Shown here: positions 29,514-34,877 of the stretch, in pieces
How positions within the stretch are numbered: position 1 is the stretch's first letter
Layout of the letters: every line of letters begins with the position of its first letter
The notes under the pieces: model-generated
The model's input: only the letters and a program-made list of their open reading frames with translations
What the model was told of the DNA's origin: nothing
Database searches by the model: none
Origin: Glycomyces albidus
GTDB taxonomy: Bacteria > Actinomycetota > Actinomycetes > Mycobacteriales > Micromonosporaceae
Assembly: GCF_009451885.1 (NCBI RefSeq)
Contig: NZ_WIAO01000014.1
Coordinates: 62,001-126,000 of the forward strand
Reading direction: 5' to 3'
Length of the DNA stretch: 64,000 bases
Position numbers and translations under genes: made by a program

Positions 29514-30311
29514 CTAGCGGGTGAGCGCTTTGTAGAGGGCGATCCAGCGGTCGGGCGGGACGAGGCCGACCGGGGCGTCCTTCGCGATGCCGGCCTCGGC
29601 GCAGGCGCGGGCCGCGGCGCGGGCGGGGACGGCCTGGCGCAGGGAGGCCGCGAGGGAGCCGCCGATGCCGGTGAAGCCGAGGGCGACCAGGTCGCGGTAG
29701 TCGGCGAGGTCGCGCCGGGGCAGCAGCGGCTCAGGCCGCCGTCGCAGGTGGAGGACGGCCGCGTCGACTTTGGGGACCGGCCGGAACCGGTGGCGGCCGA
29801 TGCGCATCCCGAGCGCGAGTTCGTGCTCGGGCCAGGCGTCGACGGCGAGTTTGGACCAGCGGCCGTAATCGCCGGTGTGCTTGCGGGCGAACTCGAGCTG
29901 GACGACCAGGCTCGCGGTGGTGAGCGAGCGGGCGTCCAGGCACCAGCGGACGATGTCGGTGGTGATCGCGAAGGGCACGTTGGCGACGACGCGGAACGGC
30001 TCCCGCGGCGGACGGGCGTCGCGGAAGTCGCCGGTGTGGAGCCGGAAGTGCTCGTGGTGGCCGAAGCGGGAGCGCAGGCGCTCGGCGAAGTGCCGGTCCT
30101 TCTCGTAGGCGATCACGCGGCGGGCGCGGTCCAGGAGCGGCCCGGTGAGCATGCCGCCGCCGGGGCCGGCCTCGACGACGAGGTCGTCGGGTCCGACGTC
30201 CGCGGCGAGGCGGCGCGCCAGGTGCGCGTCGGCGAGGAAGTTCTGGGACAGGCGCTTGCGGTCGGAGACGCCGCGGGACTCGCGGGCGCGCGGGAACTGG
30301 CTGCGGGACAT
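29514..30311 (-). CDS. Erm-family 23S rRNA (adenine-N6) methyltransferase
   Basis: 265 aa SAM-dependent enzyme of the family that methylates A2058 of 23S rRNA and gives macrolide-lincosamide-streptogramin B resistance. Motifs are RKRLSQNFLAD, VVEAGPGGGMLT (SAM), VVANVPFAIT (catalytic NxPF) and LVVQLEFARKHTGDYGRWS. The last is characteristic of actinobacterial Erm rather than the KsgA housekeeping dimethylase. GGAGG lies 7 nt before ATG 30311. A leader peptide and mutually exclusive hairpins lie upstream. Confidence 0.9.
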   Translation of the reverse strand: MSRSQFPRARESRGVSDRKRLSQNFLADAHLARRLAADVGPDDLVVEAGPGGGMLTGPLLDRARRVIAYEKDRHFAERLRSRFGHHEHFRLHTGDFRDARPPREPFRVVANVPFAITTDIVRWCLDARSLTTASLVVQLEFARKHTGDYGRWSKLAVDAWPEHELALGMRIGRHRFRPVPKVDAAVLHLRRRPEPLLPRRDLADYRDLVALGFTGIGGSLAASLRQAVPARAAARACAEAGIAKDAPVGLVPPDRWIALYKALTR

Positions 30312-30586: not shown

Positions 30587-32101
30587 TCACCTCGAGGCGG
30601 CGCCGCGGTCCCTGACGCGGATCGGGCCGGTGTCGCCGGTCGAGTAGCGCCCGGGCACGTGCAGGCGAAGGACGGCCTCGCCGGCCCAGTCGGGGACCGA
30701 GCCGGGCCGGGACGCGGCGGCCATCGTCGCGAACGCCAGCGGGACCGTCCACAGTGCCGGCTGCGCGAGCAGGATCGACCAGGTGCCGGGCGGCAGGTCG
30801 AGGATCACCGACGCCAGCGCCGCGCCGGTGGAGGAGGCGGCGCCGACGAGAAGCCCGGCCGTGGCGCCGGTCGCGGTGAGGCCGCGCCACCAGATCCCGA
30901 GGGTCAGCAGCGGGCAGAACGTGGAGGCGGCGACGGCGAAGGCCCAGCCGACCAGGACGTTGATATCGACGTCGGCGGCCGGGAGCGACAGCACCACCGC
31001 GAGGGCGGTGCCGGCGAGGACCCCCAGGCGCAGCTTGGAGAGCGAGCCGCCGAACAGGTCGTGCGAGAGGCCCCCGGCGAGCGCGAGCAGCAGCCCCGAG
31101 GACGTCGACAGGAACGCCGCGAACGCGCCCGCGGCGACGAGCGCGGTGAGGACCGCGCCCACGGTGCCCGGCGCGATCGCCTCGGGCACGAGCACCGGGA
31201 CGACGTCGGTCTCCTCGGGGTTCGGGACGACGATGCGTCCCAGGAGGCCGTAGACGATCGGGAACAGGTAGAACAGGCTGAGCAGGACGATCACCGAGAC
31301 GGCGACCCGGCGGGCCGCGCGGGCGCCGGCGACGGTGTGGAAGCGCATCACGACGTGCGGGAGTCCCATGGCGCCCAAGGTGGTCGCCACCAGGACCGAC
31401 ACGGTCGCCAGGACCGAGTGGCCCGAGCCGTCGAGGTCGAGCAGCGGCCGGGCCCAGTCCGGGTCGGGGCCGGTGGTGGCGAGGGCGGCTTCGCGGCGGT
31501 CGGTTCCGGCCAGGACGATGAGCACGATCGCGGGGCCGGCGATGAACACGAGCTTCACGATGTAGTGGAACGCCTGCACGTAGGTCGCCGAGCGCATCCC
31601 GCCGACCGCGATCGTGGAGGAGACGACGAGGCCGGCGCCGATGACGCCGATCCAGTACGGGATGCCGGAGACGAGTTCGAGGACGACTCCGGCGGCCTTG
31701 AACTGCGGCAGCAGGTACAGCAGCATGATCACCAGGACGACGAGGCCGCACATGCGGCGGATGCGCGGTGAGCCGAGCCGGTACTCGGCGAAGTCGGGGA
31801 CGGTGTAGGCGCCGCTGCGGCGCATCGGCCCGGCGACGAGGGCCGCGACGAGCACGTACCCGGCGGTGAAGCCCACGGCGTACCACATCGCGCCGACGCC
31901 GTTCTTGACGAGCAGGCCCGCGAGGCCGAGTACCGAAGCGGCCGAGACGTACTCCCCCGCGATCGCGAGCGCGTTCCAGCCGGGCACGATCGAGCGGGAG
32001 GCCACCAGGAAGTCCGGTGTGGAGCGGGCGGCGCGCACGCCCCACACGCCGATGACGACGCTGGCGATGAGCACCAGCATGATCGCGGCCAGGCCGAGCA
32101 T
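30587..32101 (-). CDS. Sodium/solute symporter (SSS family), carboxylate type
   Basis: 504 aa with about 13 membrane helices, probably importing a short carboxylate with Na+ or H+. DFLVASRSIVPGWNALAIAGEYVSAAS, SATYVQAFHYIVK, MGLPHVVMRFHTV and the Ser-rich FLSTSSGLLLALAGGLSHD helix are typical of the acetate/monocarboxylate branch of SSS. Its ATG (32101) shares one base with the stop of the small membrane protein before it (TGATG). It is the last gene of the LytS/LytTR chain, so it is the likely target of that sensor. Confidence 0.88.
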   Translation of the reverse strand: MLGLAAIMLVLIASVVIGVWGVRAARSTPDFLVASRSIVPGWNALAIAGEYVSAASVLGLAGLLVKNGVGAMWYAVGFTAGYVLVAALVAGPMRRSGAYTVPDFAEYRLGSPRIRRMCGLVVLVIMLLYLLPQFKAAGVVLELVSGIPYWIGVIGAGLVVSSTIAVGGMRSATYVQAFHYIVKLVFIAGPAIVLIVLAGTDRREAALATTGPDPDWARPLLDLDGSGHSVLATVSVLVATTLGAMGLPHVVMRFHTVAGARAARRVAVSVIVLLSLFYLFPIVYGLLGRIVVPNPEETDVVPVLVPEAIAPGTVGAVLTALVAAGAFAAFLSTSSGLLLALAGGLSHDLFGGSLSKLRLGVLAGTALAVVLSLPAADVDINVLVGWAFAVAASTFCPLLTLGIWWRGLTATGATAGLLVGAASSTGAALASVILDLPPGTWSILLAQPALWTVPLAFATMAAASRPGSVPDWAGEAVLRLHVPGRYSTGDTGPIRVRDRGAASR

Positions 32102-32454
32102 CAGGGGCCGTCCGTGTCGTGGTCGGCCTCGACGCGTTCGGCGCGGCGCACGTGGACGGCGGCGAGGACCAGGAGGACCGGGTAGGGCGCGAAGAACAGG
32201 ACGGCCCAGCCGAGCCGGCCGGGGACGACCGCGGCGGCGGTGAGCAGCGCGGCTAGTGCGACGGCGAGCGCGGCGGCGGTGCCGGCGGCGAGGCGGCGCT
32301 GGCGTCGGAGGGCGCGTTCGGCGGCGACGAGGTCGATCGCGGAGGAGGGGATCGGGGGCCGCCCGGCGAGGTGGCTCAACCGGCCCATGGCGTCCGCCCC
32401 GCGCCGCTGCGCGAGGCGGGTCTGGGGGCTCGTGACGCGGACGCGTTGGATCAC
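32101..32454 (-). CDS. Small two-helix membrane protein, partner of the symporter
   Basis: 117 aa. A basic cytosolic N-terminus is followed by two membrane helices (about 53-73 and 77-97). It is not clearly a DUF485 protein, but occupies the place DUF485 proteins take before acetate symporters (as at 36726-37079). It starts with GTG at 32454, overlapping the stop of the repeat-built frame upstream (GTGA). Its TGA shares a base with the symporter ATG. GGAG lies 10 nt before the start. Confidence 0.72.
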   Translation of the reverse strand: MIQRVRVTSPQTRLAQRRGADAMGRLSHLAGRPPIPSSAIDLVAAERALRRQRRLAAGTAAALAVALAALLTAAAVVPGRLGWAVLFFAPYPVLLVLAAVHVRRAERVEADHDTDGP

Positions 32455-32810
32455 GGCGCGGACTCCAGTCCGGCGAGCGGCGGGCGGGTGCGGTGCGGCG
32501 ATCCCATCGGGCACCGGGTGCGGTGCGGTACACCTGGGCGGCGCATCCGGTGTGCAGTCATCGAACAGGGGGTCCGAGGCAACGCCGCCACCGCGCGGCG
32601 GGTGCAATGCAACTCCGGCATAGCGCGACAGATGCGGTGCGGCACCCCAGCCGAGCGGCGGGTCCATTGCAATTCCGGCATCGGGCAGCGGGTGCGGTGC
32701 GGCACCTCTGGCCGGCGGCTCGTCCAGTGCCACGCCGGCACCGGGCAGCGGGTGCGGTGCGGCGTCCCCGCCGGGCGGCGGGGGGCGGCGGTCGGGCGCG
32801 TGCGGGTCAT
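32451..32810 (-). CDS. Repeat-built small ORF 2, bridging regulator and membrane protein
   Basis: A 119-codon frame whose ATG (32810) overlaps the regulator's TGA (ATGA) and whose TGA (32451) overlaps the next GTG (GTGA). Residues 16-75 are three exact 20-residue (60-bp) units of the form VPHRTRCPMPELQWTRRSAG; a degenerate 18-residue unit and two partial ones follow. The peptide is Arg/Pro-rich with Cys, His and Trp and has no known domain. It may be translated, or may be a repeat element that keeps ribosomes moving across the gap. The ribosome site is weak. Confidence 0.5.
   Translation of the reverse strand: MTRTRPTAAPRRPAGTPHRTRCPVPAWHWTSRRPEVPHRTRCPMPELQWTRRSAGVPHRICRAMPELHCTRRAVAALPRTPCSMTAHRMRRPGVPHRTRCPMGSPHRTRPPLAGLESAP
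32470..32765. repeat. Tandem 60-bp repeat array 2 (MIRU-like)
   Basis: Units run 32706-32765, 32646-32705 and 32586-32645, then decay toward 32470. On the plus strand each is recognised by a GGGTGCGGTGCGGC-type core. The array fills almost the whole interval between the response-regulator stop and the next start. Confidence 0.8.
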
Positions 32811-33550
32811 GAGTCGCCGCGCACCGCTTGGAGGAGGCGTTCGCGCAGCAGACGCGAGTGGCGGCGGCTGACGGGCACTTCGCCGGCGCCGGTGACGGCG
32901 ACGAGGCCGGCCGTGGAGGTCACGCGCAGTTCGGTGATGGCGGCGAGGTTGACCAGGAACGAGCGGTGGGCGCGCACGAATCCAGCGGCGTCCCAGACCT
33001 CTTCGAGGTAGGTGAGGGACTGGCGCAGCAGGTGCGAGTGCTGTCCTGAGTGGAGCCTCACGTAGTCGCCGTGGGCTTCGGCGTAGGCGATGTCGTCGCG
33101 CCGCACGAACACGGTCCGCCCGGCGAGCTCGACCTGGACGACGGCGAGGTCGTCGGCCTTGTCCCCCGCCGGGGCCGGGCCGGAGCGGCGGCCGATGCGG
33201 GCGACGGCCTCGGCGAGTCGCTCGGGCCGGAACGGCTTGAGCAGGTAGTCGACCGCGCCGAGCCCGAACGCCTCGACGGCGTGGTTGTCGTAGGCGGTGA
33301 CGAAGACGATCGCGGGCGGGTGCGAGAGCCGCCGCAGGATGCGGGCGACGTCGATCCCGGTCAGGCCGGGCATGGCGATGTCGAGGAACGCGGCGTCGAA
33401 GGTGCCCTCGCCGAGGAGGCGCACCGCTTCGTCGCCGCCGGCGGCGCACTGGACGTCGCCGACGCTCGGCTGCTCGGCGAGCTGCCCGGCGAGCTCGGCG
33501 CGGGTCGAGGGCTCGTCCTCGACGACGAGGATGCGCAGACCGCCGCTCAT
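32807..33550 (-). CDS. LytTR-family response regulator
   Basis: 247 aa DNA-binding regulator. The receiver domain is at about 5-120, with EDE (11-13), phospho-Asp57 (AFLDIAMPG), Thr in FVTAYDN and Lys in YLLKPF. A LytTR domain occupies about 145-245 (FVRRDDIAYAEAHGDYVRLHS, FVRAHRSFLVNL). GGGAG lies 6 nt before ATG 33550. Its start overlaps the stop of one repeat-built frame and its stop overlaps the start of another. It is paired with the LytS-type kinase upstream. Confidence 0.94.
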   Translation of the reverse strand: MSGGLRILVVEDEPSTRAELAGQLAEQPSVGDVQCAAGGDEAVRLLGEGTFDAAFLDIAMPGLTGIDVARILRRLSHPPAIVFVTAYDNHAVEAFGLGAVDYLLKPFRPERLAEAVARIGRRSGPAPAGDKADDLAVVQVELAGRTVFVRRDDIAYAEAHGDYVRLHSGQHSHLLRQSLTYLEEVWDAAGFVRAHRSFLVNLAAITELRVTSTAGLVAVTGAGEVPVSRRHSRLLRERLLQAVRGDS

Positions 33551-33822
33551 CGCCCGCTCCCGTCCGGTCGGCGAGCGGGCCGGGCGCGAGAGCCGCGTTC
33601 CGACTCCGCGCGAAGCCGTCCCGCCGCGACACGGCGGGCGCCGTGTGAGAGCGACAAGGTGCGGGGACTTCGTTCCGGCTCGGAGAAAAGTCCTGCCGAG
33701 GCACGGCGCGCGAAAGGCGGCCGCATCAAGGTGCCGGAACTCCGTCCCGGCTCGGCGAGGAACACTCCCGGCGCAGGGCGGCGCGCGACATGTGCGCGCG
33801 TCAAGGTGCGGGCGCTGCTCAT
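33547..33822 (-). CDS. Repeat-built small ORF 1, bridging kinase and regulator
   Basis: A 91-codon frame. ATG 33822 overlaps the kinase TGA and TGA 33547 overlaps the regulator ATG, both as ATGA. GAGGAG lies 7 nt before the start. Residues 5-78 are three units of 24-25 residues sharing TL-x5-ARR-x-A-x-G and a (A/S)E(P/S)xR tail. The final 13 residues are unique. No domain is recognised. The same placement, between sensor and regulator, with overlapping starts and stops, is known for MIRU repeats in mycobacterial senX3-regX3. Confidence 0.55.
   Translation of the reverse strand: MSSARTLTRAHVARRPAPGVFLAEPGRSSGTLMRPPFARRASAGLFSEPERSPRTLSLSHGARRVAAGRLRAESERGSRARPARRPDGSGR
33589..33810. repeat. 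Tandem 72-75-bp repeat array 1 (MIRU-like)
   Basis: Three imperfect tandem units: 33736-33810, 33664-33735 and 33589-33663. They fill the interval between the kinase stop and the regulator start. The unit sequence differs from the 60-bp array downstream. Confidence 0.8.
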
Positions 33823-34877
33823 GCGTGGACTCCTCTGGCGTAGCGGGGGATGCGCACGGTGGCCTTGGTGCCCGCGCCGGGCGCGGTGTCGAGCCACAGG
33901 CCGTACTCGGGACCGTAGACGGCCCGCAGGCGCTTGTCGACGTTGGCGAGGCCGATGCGGCCCGAGCCGGCGCGGCTGCCGGTCAGGATCGCCTTGGCCA
34001 CGTCGGGGTCCATCCCGGCGCCGTCGTCCTCGACCTCGATGACGCACAGGGGCCCCTCGGAGAAGCCGCGAACGGCGATGTGGCCGGTGCCGGGCCGGGA
34101 CTCGAAGCCGTGGCGGACGGCGTTCTCGACGATGGGCTGGACCACCAGGAACGGGATGGGCACGGGCAGGACCTCCGGGGCGATGCGCACGGTGATGTCG
34201 AGTCGGTCGTCGAAGCGGGCCCGCTGGAGCTCGAGGTAGGTCTGGACGGCGTGGAGCTCGTCGGCCACCGTCGCGAAGTCCCCGGTCCCCGCGAACGAGT
34301 AGCGGAGGTAGTCGGAGAAGTCGGTGAGGAGCTCGCGGGCGCGCTCGGGGTCGGTGCGGGTGTGGGCGCTGATGGCGGCGAGGGCGTTGTGCATGAAGTG
34401 CGGCGAGATCTGGGCCCTGAGGGTGCGGAGGTCGGCTTCGGCGATGCGTTCGCGGGCCCGGACGAGGTCGGCGTGGTCGAGCGCGCGGGCGACGAGGTCG
34501 GCGGCCTCGGCGAGGTCGGCGTCGCTGACGTCCCCCGAGACGAGCAGGCACCCGGCCAGGTCGCCCGAGACGACGAGCGGGGCCGCGCGCAGCGGCGGCG
34601 CGGTGACCGGTTCGAGGACGTCGAGCGTCTCCACCAGGAGCGCCTGGGCCGCGTCGGGGTCGAGGCTCCCGGCGGTGGCCAGGAGCTTCTCGCAGTCGGC
34701 CAGCGCGACGGCGTCCGCCGCGAGGAGCCGGGCCAGGCGGCGGGCGGCGAGCTGGGCGCCCTTGCCGGTGAGCCCGTCGGCGAGGGCTTCGCCGATCTGG
34801 CGCGACAAGCGCAGCGCGGCGAGGGTCGCCGCGCTGCCGGTCCGCCGTCGCTGGCGGTGAGGGGATCGCGCGATCAC
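33819..34877 (-). CDS. LytS-type histidine kinase, soluble
   Basis: 352 aa. An N-terminal GAF-like region (about 30-140) has no membrane segment, unlike most LytS proteins. The His_kinase domain has AQISPHFMHNALAAI (phospho-His160). The ATPase domain has VVQPIVENAVRHGFE (N box), DDGAGM and GIGLANV-like RIGLANVDKRL. It starts with GTG at 34877, with a TACAGT -10 just upstream, so possibly leaderless. It is the first gene of a six-frame overlapping chain ending in a carboxylate symporter. Its family includes the pyruvate sensors BtsS and YpdA. Confidence 0.92.
   Translation of the reverse strand: MIARSPHRQRRRTGSAATLAALRLSRQIGEALADGLTGKGAQLAARRLARLLAADAVALADCEKLLATAGSLDPDAAQALLVETLDVLEPVTAPPLRAAPLVVSGDLAGCLLVSGDVSDADLAEAADLVARALDHADLVRARERIAEADLRTLRAQISPHFMHNALAAISAHTRTDPERARELLTDFSDYLRYSFAGTGDFATVADELHAVQTYLELQRARFDDRLDITVRIAPEVLPVPIPFLVVQPIVENAVRHGFESRPGTGHIAVRGFSEGPLCVIEVEDDGAGMDPDVAKAILTGSRAGSGRIGLANVDKRLRAVYGPEYGLWLDTAPGAGTKATVRIPRYARGVHA

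What the first reader, a model, noticed from the sequence alone, without database searches (positions are those of the whole stretch)
30587..34877. MIRU-like repeat ORFs built into a LytS/LytTR two-component operon
Six minus-strand frames form an unbroken overlapping chain: kinase, repeat ORF 1, LytTR regulator, repeat ORF 2, small membrane protein, SSS symporter. The junctions are ATGA, ATGA, ATGA, GTGA and TGATG. ORF 1 (91 codons) is three 24-25-residue units; ORF 2 (119 codons) starts with three exact 20-residue units. ORF 1 has a proper ribosome site (GAGGAG, 7 nt). Overlap at both ends of both frames would be unlikely if they were ordinary spacers. The layout matches mycobacterial interspersed repetitive units (MIRUs), described between senX3 and regX3, where tandem repeats hold ORFs whose start and stop overlap the neighbouring genes. 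Here two different unit types occupy one operon, and the regulated gene is a carboxylate symporter. The repeats may set the stoichiometry of kinase, regulator and transporter by controlling coupled translation, or they may encode real small proteins.
Basis: partly seen in the sequence, partly recalled or inferred. Interest (0 to 1): 0.88.

Follow-up and report, generated by a model that had tools for sequence, protein, structure and literature searches.

The report
Repeat-built relay ORFs between operon genes
In the actinobacterium Glycomyces, two repetitive stretches wedged between operon genes look like inserted DNA whose sequence is free to change but whose reading frame and overlapping start and stop signals are kept, probably so that ribosomes can pass from one gene to the next.

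Summary
In detail: kinase, ORF1, LytTR regulator, ORF2, membrane protein and symporter are chained by ATGA, ATGA, ATGA, GTGA and TGATG; ORF2's units are exact in length, not sequence. The genus is Glycomyces. Neither array was found again in 22 genomes, and neither looks protein-coding (unit differences are not concentrated at third codon positions). Siblings keep the operon but have dissimilar spacers, or a bare overlap, at the same junctions. Several carry a dispersed ~66-nt repeat (107 hits, 20 of 22 genomes) with a Shine-Dalgarno, between co-directional genes; outside Glycomyces one marginal hit was seen. Spacers share a frame rather than a sequence: of 42 in six junction families, 37 hold an ORF running from the upstream RTGA to within -9..+1 of the next start (shifted frames 9 and 12). 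Empty and filled arg sites indicate insertion at RTGA overlaps. This is the architecture described for mycobacterial MIRUs. Against it: in the window's own genome the rule is weak (12 of 85 RTGA junctions; 7 and 7 shifted), and one other repeat-filled ATGA junction breaks it. The window arrays are best read as long, tandemly grown relays; descent from the dispersed element is unproven, translation untested.

The parts
33819..34877 (-). Sensor histidine kinase gene (His_kinase + HATPase_c); its stop overlaps the ORF1 start (ATGA 33822-33819)
33547..33822 (-). ORF1: 91-codon relay-type ORF made of three 72-75-nt tandem units; ATGA at both ends
33619..33809 (-). Tandem array 1 (TRF period 72, 2.6 copies, score 178)
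32807..33550 (-). LytTR response regulator (Response_reg + LytTR)
32451..32810 (-). ORF2: 119-codon relay-type ORF; starts in the ATGA of the regulator stop, ends in the GTGA of the next start
32595..32782 (-). Tandem array 2 (TRF period 60, 3.1 copies, score 209)
32462..32523 (-). Weak, near full-length match to the dispersed Glycomyces element (model 2-59 of 66, 6.6 bits, E 0.12 in 9 kb, third best of 67 listed), with its GGAGT 7 nt before the GTG start: possible element remnant, noted after the fact
32101..32454 (-). Small membrane protein, no family above its cut-off; GTG start overlaps the ORF2 stop
30587..32101 (-). Sodium:solute symporter (SSF); start overlaps the previous stop (TGATG)

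Best explanation
ORF1 and ORF2 are translational relay ORFs: non-protein spacers inserted at former bare RTGA start/stop overlaps between operon genes and grown by tandem duplication. A ribosome finishing the kinase reinitiates at the overlapping ATG, reads the repeat ORF, and terminates on the start codon of the regulator, next to a Shine-Dalgarno carried by the 3' end of the spacer; the same happens between regulator and membrane protein. Selection keeps the frame, the absence of stops and the overlaps, not the peptide or the DNA sequence. The kind is MIRU-like. Shown: bare overlaps at the same junctions in siblings, overlaps or short gaps in six outgroup loci, strong spacer turnover, recurrence of frame and overlap, a dispersed element with a Shine-Dalgarno at such junctions, and lack of coding signature. 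Inferred: that ribosomes really translate the relays, that coupling is the selected function, that insertion is by transposition, and that the window arrays descend from the dispersed element.
For: The regulator was found in all 22 Glycomyces genomes, with kinase, membrane protein and symporter beside it except that no kinase was seen on the short G017 contig. Kinase/regulator junction a bare 4-nt overlap in 9 of 21, spacers of 31-342 nt in the other 12; regulator/TM junction -4 in 4 of 22. Spacers >20 nt beginning in RTGA: gap = 1 mod 3 in 20 of 25, or 18 of 23 unique lengths (naive binomial 2e-6 and 1.3e-5); over all 28 spacers >20 nt, interior stops are 3 of 1097 codons in the relay frame against 12 of 1124 and 10 of 1102 in the others. 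Pooled with argC/argJ, argJ/argB, argF/argR and pgk/tpiA: 37 of 42 relay ORFs end within -9..+1 of the next start, frame-shifted controls 9 and 12 of 42. Bare RTGA in 17 of 21 argC/argJ and 19 of 21 argJ/argB sites; the filled ones have RTGA on both sides. Dispersed element: 107 hits in 20 of 22 genomes; of 59 copies with GGAGTRA, 56 precede a co-oriented coding frame, of 32 other copies 19 do. Codon-position GC in ORF1 is 0.73/0.75/0.74 against 0.71-0.84/0.48-0.58/0.94-0.97 in the four genes; unit differences at codon positions 1, 2, 3 are 28/73, 15/71, 25/73 (ORF1) and 15, 15, 16 of 60 (ORF2). Shine-Dalgarno-like motif before the downstream start in 23 of 28 spacers.
Against: In 1.26 Mb of the window's own genome (own gene caller) RTGA-stop pairs show no phase bias in general (31 of 85; 39 of 109 with TTGA included); the relay frame ends at the next start in 12 of 85, shifted frames in 7 and 7 (11 of 29 against 3 and 6 where the next start is XTGA). 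A repeat-array-filled junction on C34 with ATGA on both sides is out of phase (gap 348, relay stop at -25). Absence of stops is only mildly unusual against shuffles (4 of 300 reach 20 of 20). Five of 25 operon spacers are out of frame. Species are related, so the binomials are naive. Similarity of the window arrays to the dispersed element is not significant as a whole (55 and 106 of 500 shuffles reach the score; nhmmer lists no match there at E<=10). Three CTGA spacers (G003, G017, G019) have no start codon overlapping the regulator stop.
Confidence: 0.57

Rival explanations
1. Ordinary locus-specific intergenic minisatellites. GC-rich DNA has few stops and gene ends often carry RTGA, so the open frames and overlaps in this one species are luck.
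For: The genome has other strong tandem arrays with unrelated units (5 of 13 listed rows intergenic), one of them filling an ATGA...ATGA junction out of frame. No further copy of either window array was found. Both ORF frames extend far into neighbouring genes as chance open frames. Weak or no frame bias genome-wide.
Against: Frame and overlap recur in dissimilar spacers of other species and other operons: 37 of 42 against 9 and 12 in shifted frames.
Confidence: 0.25
2. The spacers act in DNA or RNA without translation: internal promoters, processing or stability elements, or plain insulating DNA with a new Shine-Dalgarno for the next gene.
For: The senX3-regX3 MIRU region is reported to drive senX3-independent regX3 expression (PMC4213456, passages read). 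A Shine-Dalgarno-like motif precedes the downstream start in 23 of 28 spacers; 62 of 91 anchored element copies carry GGAGT.
Against: Does not predict recurrence of frame and overlap. No conserved RNA fold in the element and no Rfam match at gathering score in 9 sources.
Confidence: 0.13
3. ORF1 and ORF2 encode real small functional proteins.
For: Intact frames with start signals; ORF1 has a good ribosome site. ORF1 units differ least at second codon positions (15 of 71).
Against: No second-position dip or third-position rise in ORF1 GC, unit differences not concentrated at third positions; negative codon log-odds; no Pfam match for either and no NCBIfam match; no relative found in other Glycomyces genomes at DNA level.
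Confidence: 0.05

Closest known systems
Mycobacterial interspersed repetitive units (MIRU)
   Same: Short repeats at gene junctions, described as apparently mobile, inserting at start codons so that an internal ORF is coupled to the next gene with -4 spacing (PMC12548453, one passage read); found inside a two-component operon (senX3-regX3, PMC4213456, passages read); tandem copies.
   Different: In the genomes sampled the Glycomyces element was found in Glycomyces, plus one marginal hit in another genus of the family; it was not aligned to a MIRU. Its own internal frame is not fixed. The window arrays are longer (88-118 codons between overlaps) with two unrelated unit types.
Termination-reinitiation coupling at ATGA/TGATG overlaps
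   Same: Every junction of the chain uses such an overlap; the process is described for bacteria and archaea (PMC6728339, passages read).
   Different: Here a non-gene ORF is interposed and would hand the ribosome on twice.
LytS-type kinase / LytTR regulator operons with a transporter target (BtsSR-BtsT, recalled)
   Same: His_kinase-family kinase, REC-LytTR regulator and a transporter in one operon.
   Different: No LytS sensor domain reported; BtsR-model score below cut-off (139.7 against 246).

Membership tests
MIRU-like interspersed repeats (works like) | Dispersed in many copies at intergenic junctions of co-directional genes | tested here: met
   Genus element: 107 hits in 20 of 22 genomes; 49 of 59 GGAGTRA copies lie between co-directional frames. 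Not met by the two window unit types themselves.
MIRU-like interspersed repeats (works like) | Internal ORF overlapping or abutting the neighbours' stop and start | tested here: met
   37 of 42 spacers end within -9..+1 of the next start; both window ORFs end at +1. One array-filled junction of the same genome does not.
MIRU-like interspersed repeats (works like) | Insertion into DTGA coupling sites (target recalled from Supply et al. 1997, paper not seen) | tested here: met
   Empty argC/argJ and argJ/argB junctions are RTGA overlaps; the six filled ones have RTGA on both sides, as do the nine filled argF/argR ones.
MIRU (the mycobacterial family itself) | Sequence relationship to mycobacterial MIRU | not tested
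   No MIRU sequence was fetched or aligned. The element has no match outside Glycomyces in 397 genomes of the order at E<=1e-6 (two candidates scored per genome); whether Mycobacterium was among them is not shown.
Glycomyces dispersed element | Window arrays match the element profile | tested here: inconclusive
   No significant whole match; spacer ends mildly element-like (14 and 39 of 1134 starts, 38 and 204 of 1138 stops score as high); 6.6-bit match at the canonical place in ORF2.
Genuine small protein genes | Codon signature or purifying selection on the peptide | tested here: not met
MIRU-like interspersed repeats (works like) | Copy number varies by whole units between strains | not testable with these tools
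   One genome per species is held. Two tandem element copies in G002 and three in G000 C11 show tandem growth only.

The most novel reading that the evidence does not exclude
Glycomyces has a class of sequence-free, frame-conserved translational relays. DNA of almost any sequence may be inserted or amplified at a start/stop overlap provided it stays a stop-free ORF joining both overlaps, so natural selection here acts on a reading frame that encodes nothing; the window operon holds the longest examples seen in the 1.26 Mb of the genome examined.
Probability: 0.37. Interest if true: 0.76.

Novelty: new variant of a known kind. Interest (0 to 1): 0.6.

Why it matters
It suggests that MIRU-like architecture exists outside mycobacteria, with empty and filled sites across 22 species as a natural experiment. 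It offers a direct comparative test of how far selection maintains translational coupling, and it is a warning that conserved open frames need not mean small proteins.

Tried and rejected
Dispersed copies of the window units: searched in the own genome and genus; only part of the first-look candidates were scored in each. The weak secondary hits to array 2 in the own genome (29 read) and 12 further hits in the genus looked like chance matches; 11 of those 12 lie in frames with a coding-like GC pattern, the twelfth (L287) does not. ORF1 as diverged element copies: plausible by eye, not significant by profile or shuffles. Hairpin with covariation in the element: suspected by eye, rejected by RNAalifold (2 pairs, none compensatory). 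An internal peptide in the element: its frame is scattered. Rfam: 0 matches in 9 sources. Invariance of GGAGT.A in alignment A2 is no evidence, because copies were picked for GGAGTRA. Genome-wide phase bias in G000: absent or weak. A clean long target-site duplication: only RTGA plus at most one or two bases repeat, so the insertion mechanism stays open. Literature: no Glycomyces repeat paper or MIRU-like report in other actinobacteria among the rows listed; only open-licence PMC is held. Dropped rows: second G001 operon copy L083; 11 of 102 element copies without both anchors; 44 of those 91 copies lacked a called gene on one or both sides and are outside; three CTGA spacers and two TAG-stop pgk/tpiA spacers are outside the relay counts.

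Unexplained: units within the arrays differ at 68 of 217 (ORF1) and 46 of 180 (ORF2) compared sites, more than third positions of the kinase differ from the four nearest species (13-17%; regulator 14-25%, membrane protein 25-32%), yet those species lack the arrays.

Full report
What is there. The minus strand of window 34877-30587 holds kinase, ORF1, LytTR regulator, ORF2, small membrane protein and symporter in one chain of overlaps: ATGA, ATGA, ATGA, GTGA, TGATG. Pfam supports kinase (His_kinase, HATPase_c), regulator (Response_reg, LytTR) and symporter (SSF); ORF1 and ORF2 match no family, and the membrane protein none above its cut-off. ORF1 consists of three units 75 and 72 nt apart; ORF2 has three 60-nt units in register and two partial ones. 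The arrays are the two best of 18 tandem-repeat rows in the window (scores 178 and 209); shuffled windows reach at most 88 in 20 trials. ORF2's units are exact in length, not in sequence.

Where it comes from. One same-genus record is Glycomyces algeriensis (L145; its contig length, 77067, equals that of G001 contig C13), so the window genome is a Glycomyces. All 22 genomes of the genus hold a match to the regulator. Counting one copy per genome, 21 could be compared at the kinase/regulator junction and 22 at the regulator/membrane-protein junction.

The arrays are local and not protein-like. No other array like either was found in the own genome or the other 21 genomes. In the four nearest species the match to the ORF1 query covers only its first 24-36 bases, the kinase end and the first bases of the spacer. 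Short weak hits elsewhere (E down to 5.6e-6) were read and look like chance matches; only part of the first-look candidates were scored. Codon-position GC is flat in ORF1 (0.73, 0.75, 0.74) and lacks the second-position dip in ORF2 (0.68, 0.75, 0.86), whereas the four genes show 0.71-0.84, 0.48-0.58, 0.94-0.97. Differences between units at codon positions 1, 2 and 3 are 28/73, 15/71, 25/73 in ORF1 and 15, 15, 16 of 60 in ORF2: not concentrated at third positions, though lowest at second positions in ORF1. No clear selection on a peptide is visible.

The junctions across the genus. The kinase/regulator junction is a bare 4-nt overlap in 9 of 21 and a spacer of 31-342 nt in 12. The regulator/membrane-protein junction is a 4-nt overlap in 4 of 22, an 18-19-nt gap in 2 and longer than 20 nt in 16. 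Six outgroup loci (three Streptomyces, Actinophytocola, Amycolatopsis, Nocardiopsis) have overlaps or short gaps at the kinase/regulator junction and short distances after the regulator. Spacers of close relatives (regulator 97-98% identical) look unlike the window's. Yet of 25 spacers longer than 20 nt that begin in RTGA, 20 have a length of 1 mod 3, from 28 to 412 nt, and in all 20 the ORF started by the upstream RTGA runs without a stop to -8, -2 or +1 of the next start codon. Over all 28 spacers longer than 20 nt, stops inside the relay frame number 3 in 1097 codons against 12 in 1124 and 10 in 1102 in the other frames. Dinucleotide shuffles keep on average 16.6 of the 20 in-phase frames open, and 4 of 300 keep all 20, so the phase relation, not openness alone, carries the signal. 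The binomial values (2e-6; 1.3e-5 on 23 unique lengths) ignore relatedness.

A dispersed element at such junctions. Both junctions of G006 and G004, two tandem copies in G002, and other species carry a repeat with the core CCCGCACCCGTCGCCCC..CCGAACCGGAGTRAACGC. One copy used as query gives 107 hits at E<=0.001 in 20 of 22 genomes. A consensus-like query finds only Glycomyces (10 genomes) at E<=1e-6 among 397 genomes and 85 genera of the order, and one marginal other hit (G054, E 3.8e-5) among 150 genomes of the family; only two to six candidates per genome were scored there. Of 102 distinct copies in the fetched loci, 91 had both anchors. Of 59 with GGAGTRA, 56 precede a frame coding in the same direction and 49 lie between two such frames; of the 32 others 19 and 13 do. 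No RNA fold is conserved and Rfam gives nothing in 9 sources. The own genome has seven matches at about E<=0.001, three of them in tandem on C11.

Empty and filled sites elsewhere. Because copies sit between argC and argJ, argJ and argB, argF and argR, and pgk and tpiA (ArgJ, ArgR, ArgB and TpiA supported by NCBIfam; ArgC, ArgF and Pgk named by recall), I fetched these junctions genus-wide. These families were chosen because some species carry the element there, not for their frame. argC/argJ is a bare RTGA overlap in 17 of 21 and filled in 4. argJ/argB is bare in 19 of 21 and filled in 2 (one bare site was mis-called by the script and read from the sequence). argF/argR is overlapping in 12 of 21, some with two possible start codons, and filled in 9, with spacers from 16 to 148 nt. 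pgk/tpiA has 22 rows: one filled site with RTGA, two filled sites after TAG, the rest gaps of 4 nt or less. Filled arg sites show RTGA on both sides. Pooling all six junction families, 42 spacers longer than 12 nt begin in RTGA: 33 are 1 mod 3, and 37 relay ORFs end within -9..+1 of the next start. Starting in the two other frames gives 9 and 12 of 42. Among dispersed copies with called genes on both sides, RTGA and outside this operon, 17 of 28 are in phase (naive P 0.003); this set overlaps the arg and pgk spacers.

Limits. In 1.26 Mb of the own genome, with a simple gene finder of my own, RTGA-stop gene pairs as a whole show no phase bias (31 of 85 at 1 mod 3), pairs with XTGA at both sides 14 of 29. 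The relay ORF ends at the next start in 12 of 85, the shifted frames in 7 and 7; with XTGA at the next start 11 of 29 against 3 and 6. The window's two are the longest of the twelve relay-type junctions (352 and 268 nt, next 160). The same genome has other, unrelated intergenic tandem arrays (5 of 13 strong rows), so tandem growth as such is ordinary there. One of them fills a junction on C34 with ATGA on both sides but is out of phase (gap 348; its relay ORF stops at -25), a clear exception. So the relay rule is seen at the junction families compared across species, not in spacers in general. Descent of the window arrays from the dispersed element is not shown. Profile and shuffle tests fail. 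The spacer ends are only mildly element-like (14, 39 of 1134 and 38, 204 of 1138 genes score as high). A 6.6-bit match at 32523-32462 places its GGAGT 7 nt before the membrane-protein start, as in GTG-start copies, an after-the-fact observation.

Mechanism. I read the spacers as relays for termination-reinitiation. The insertion doubles the RTGA overlap: its upstream copy becomes stop plus new start, its downstream copy stop plus old start, with a Shine-Dalgarno in front (23 of 28 spacers). A recent review describes MIRUs in just these terms, as apparently mobile repeats that insert at start codons with an internal ORF coupled at -4 and little effect on the target gene (PMC12548453, one passage read). 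MIRUs in the senX3-regX3 junction are also reported to drive expression of regX3 (PMC4213456, passages read), a rival function untested here. ATGA/TGATG reinitiation is established (PMC6728339, passages read). The original MIRU paper (Supply et al. 1997) was not seen.

Verdict. Real, MIRU-like in kind, relation to mycobacterial MIRU untested, and a variant in which frame is kept while sequence is not. No experiment on translation exists here.

Noticed in passing
window 30517-30440 (-): A 25-codon ORF (MSGSPGLNACAAFGPTFFIRLRAAA) lies about 130 nt upstream of an Erm-family 23S rRNA methyltransferase gene (29514-30311, NF000499 above cut-off); it could be an attenuator leader.
   Followed up: no
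window 37079-35047 (-): A DUF485 protein and an MctC monocarboxylate transporter (760.6 bits, cut-off 670) lie just upstream of the kinase gene, so two SSS-type carriers flank the two-component genes.
   Followed up: partly
L080, L081, L082 (G003, G017, G019): The regulator carries in-frame insertions (matches of 774, 771 and 861 nt against 741 in the window); in L080, the one aligned, it lies inside the LytTR domain after VRLH. The same species have CTGA, not RTGA, at the regulator stop.
   Followed up: partly
L083 and L075 (G001): The kinase/regulator spacer contains a run of ACGCGA hexamers, and G001 carries the regulator on two contigs with near-identical junctions, possibly an assembly duplicate.
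   Followed up: no
L401, L402, L404, L407, L412, L413: The tpiA frame stays open for about 400 codons upstream, through pgk, in several Glycomyces genomes (662-663 codons in all), although pgk ends with its own stop just before tpiA: a reminder that long open frames are cheap in this DNA.
   Followed up: no
L099 (G012 C209): Six element copies in tandem at 78-nt spacing, most with a different 3' end (GGAGCGGCTTCGCCACGC), a second subtype less tied to start codons.
   Followed up: partly
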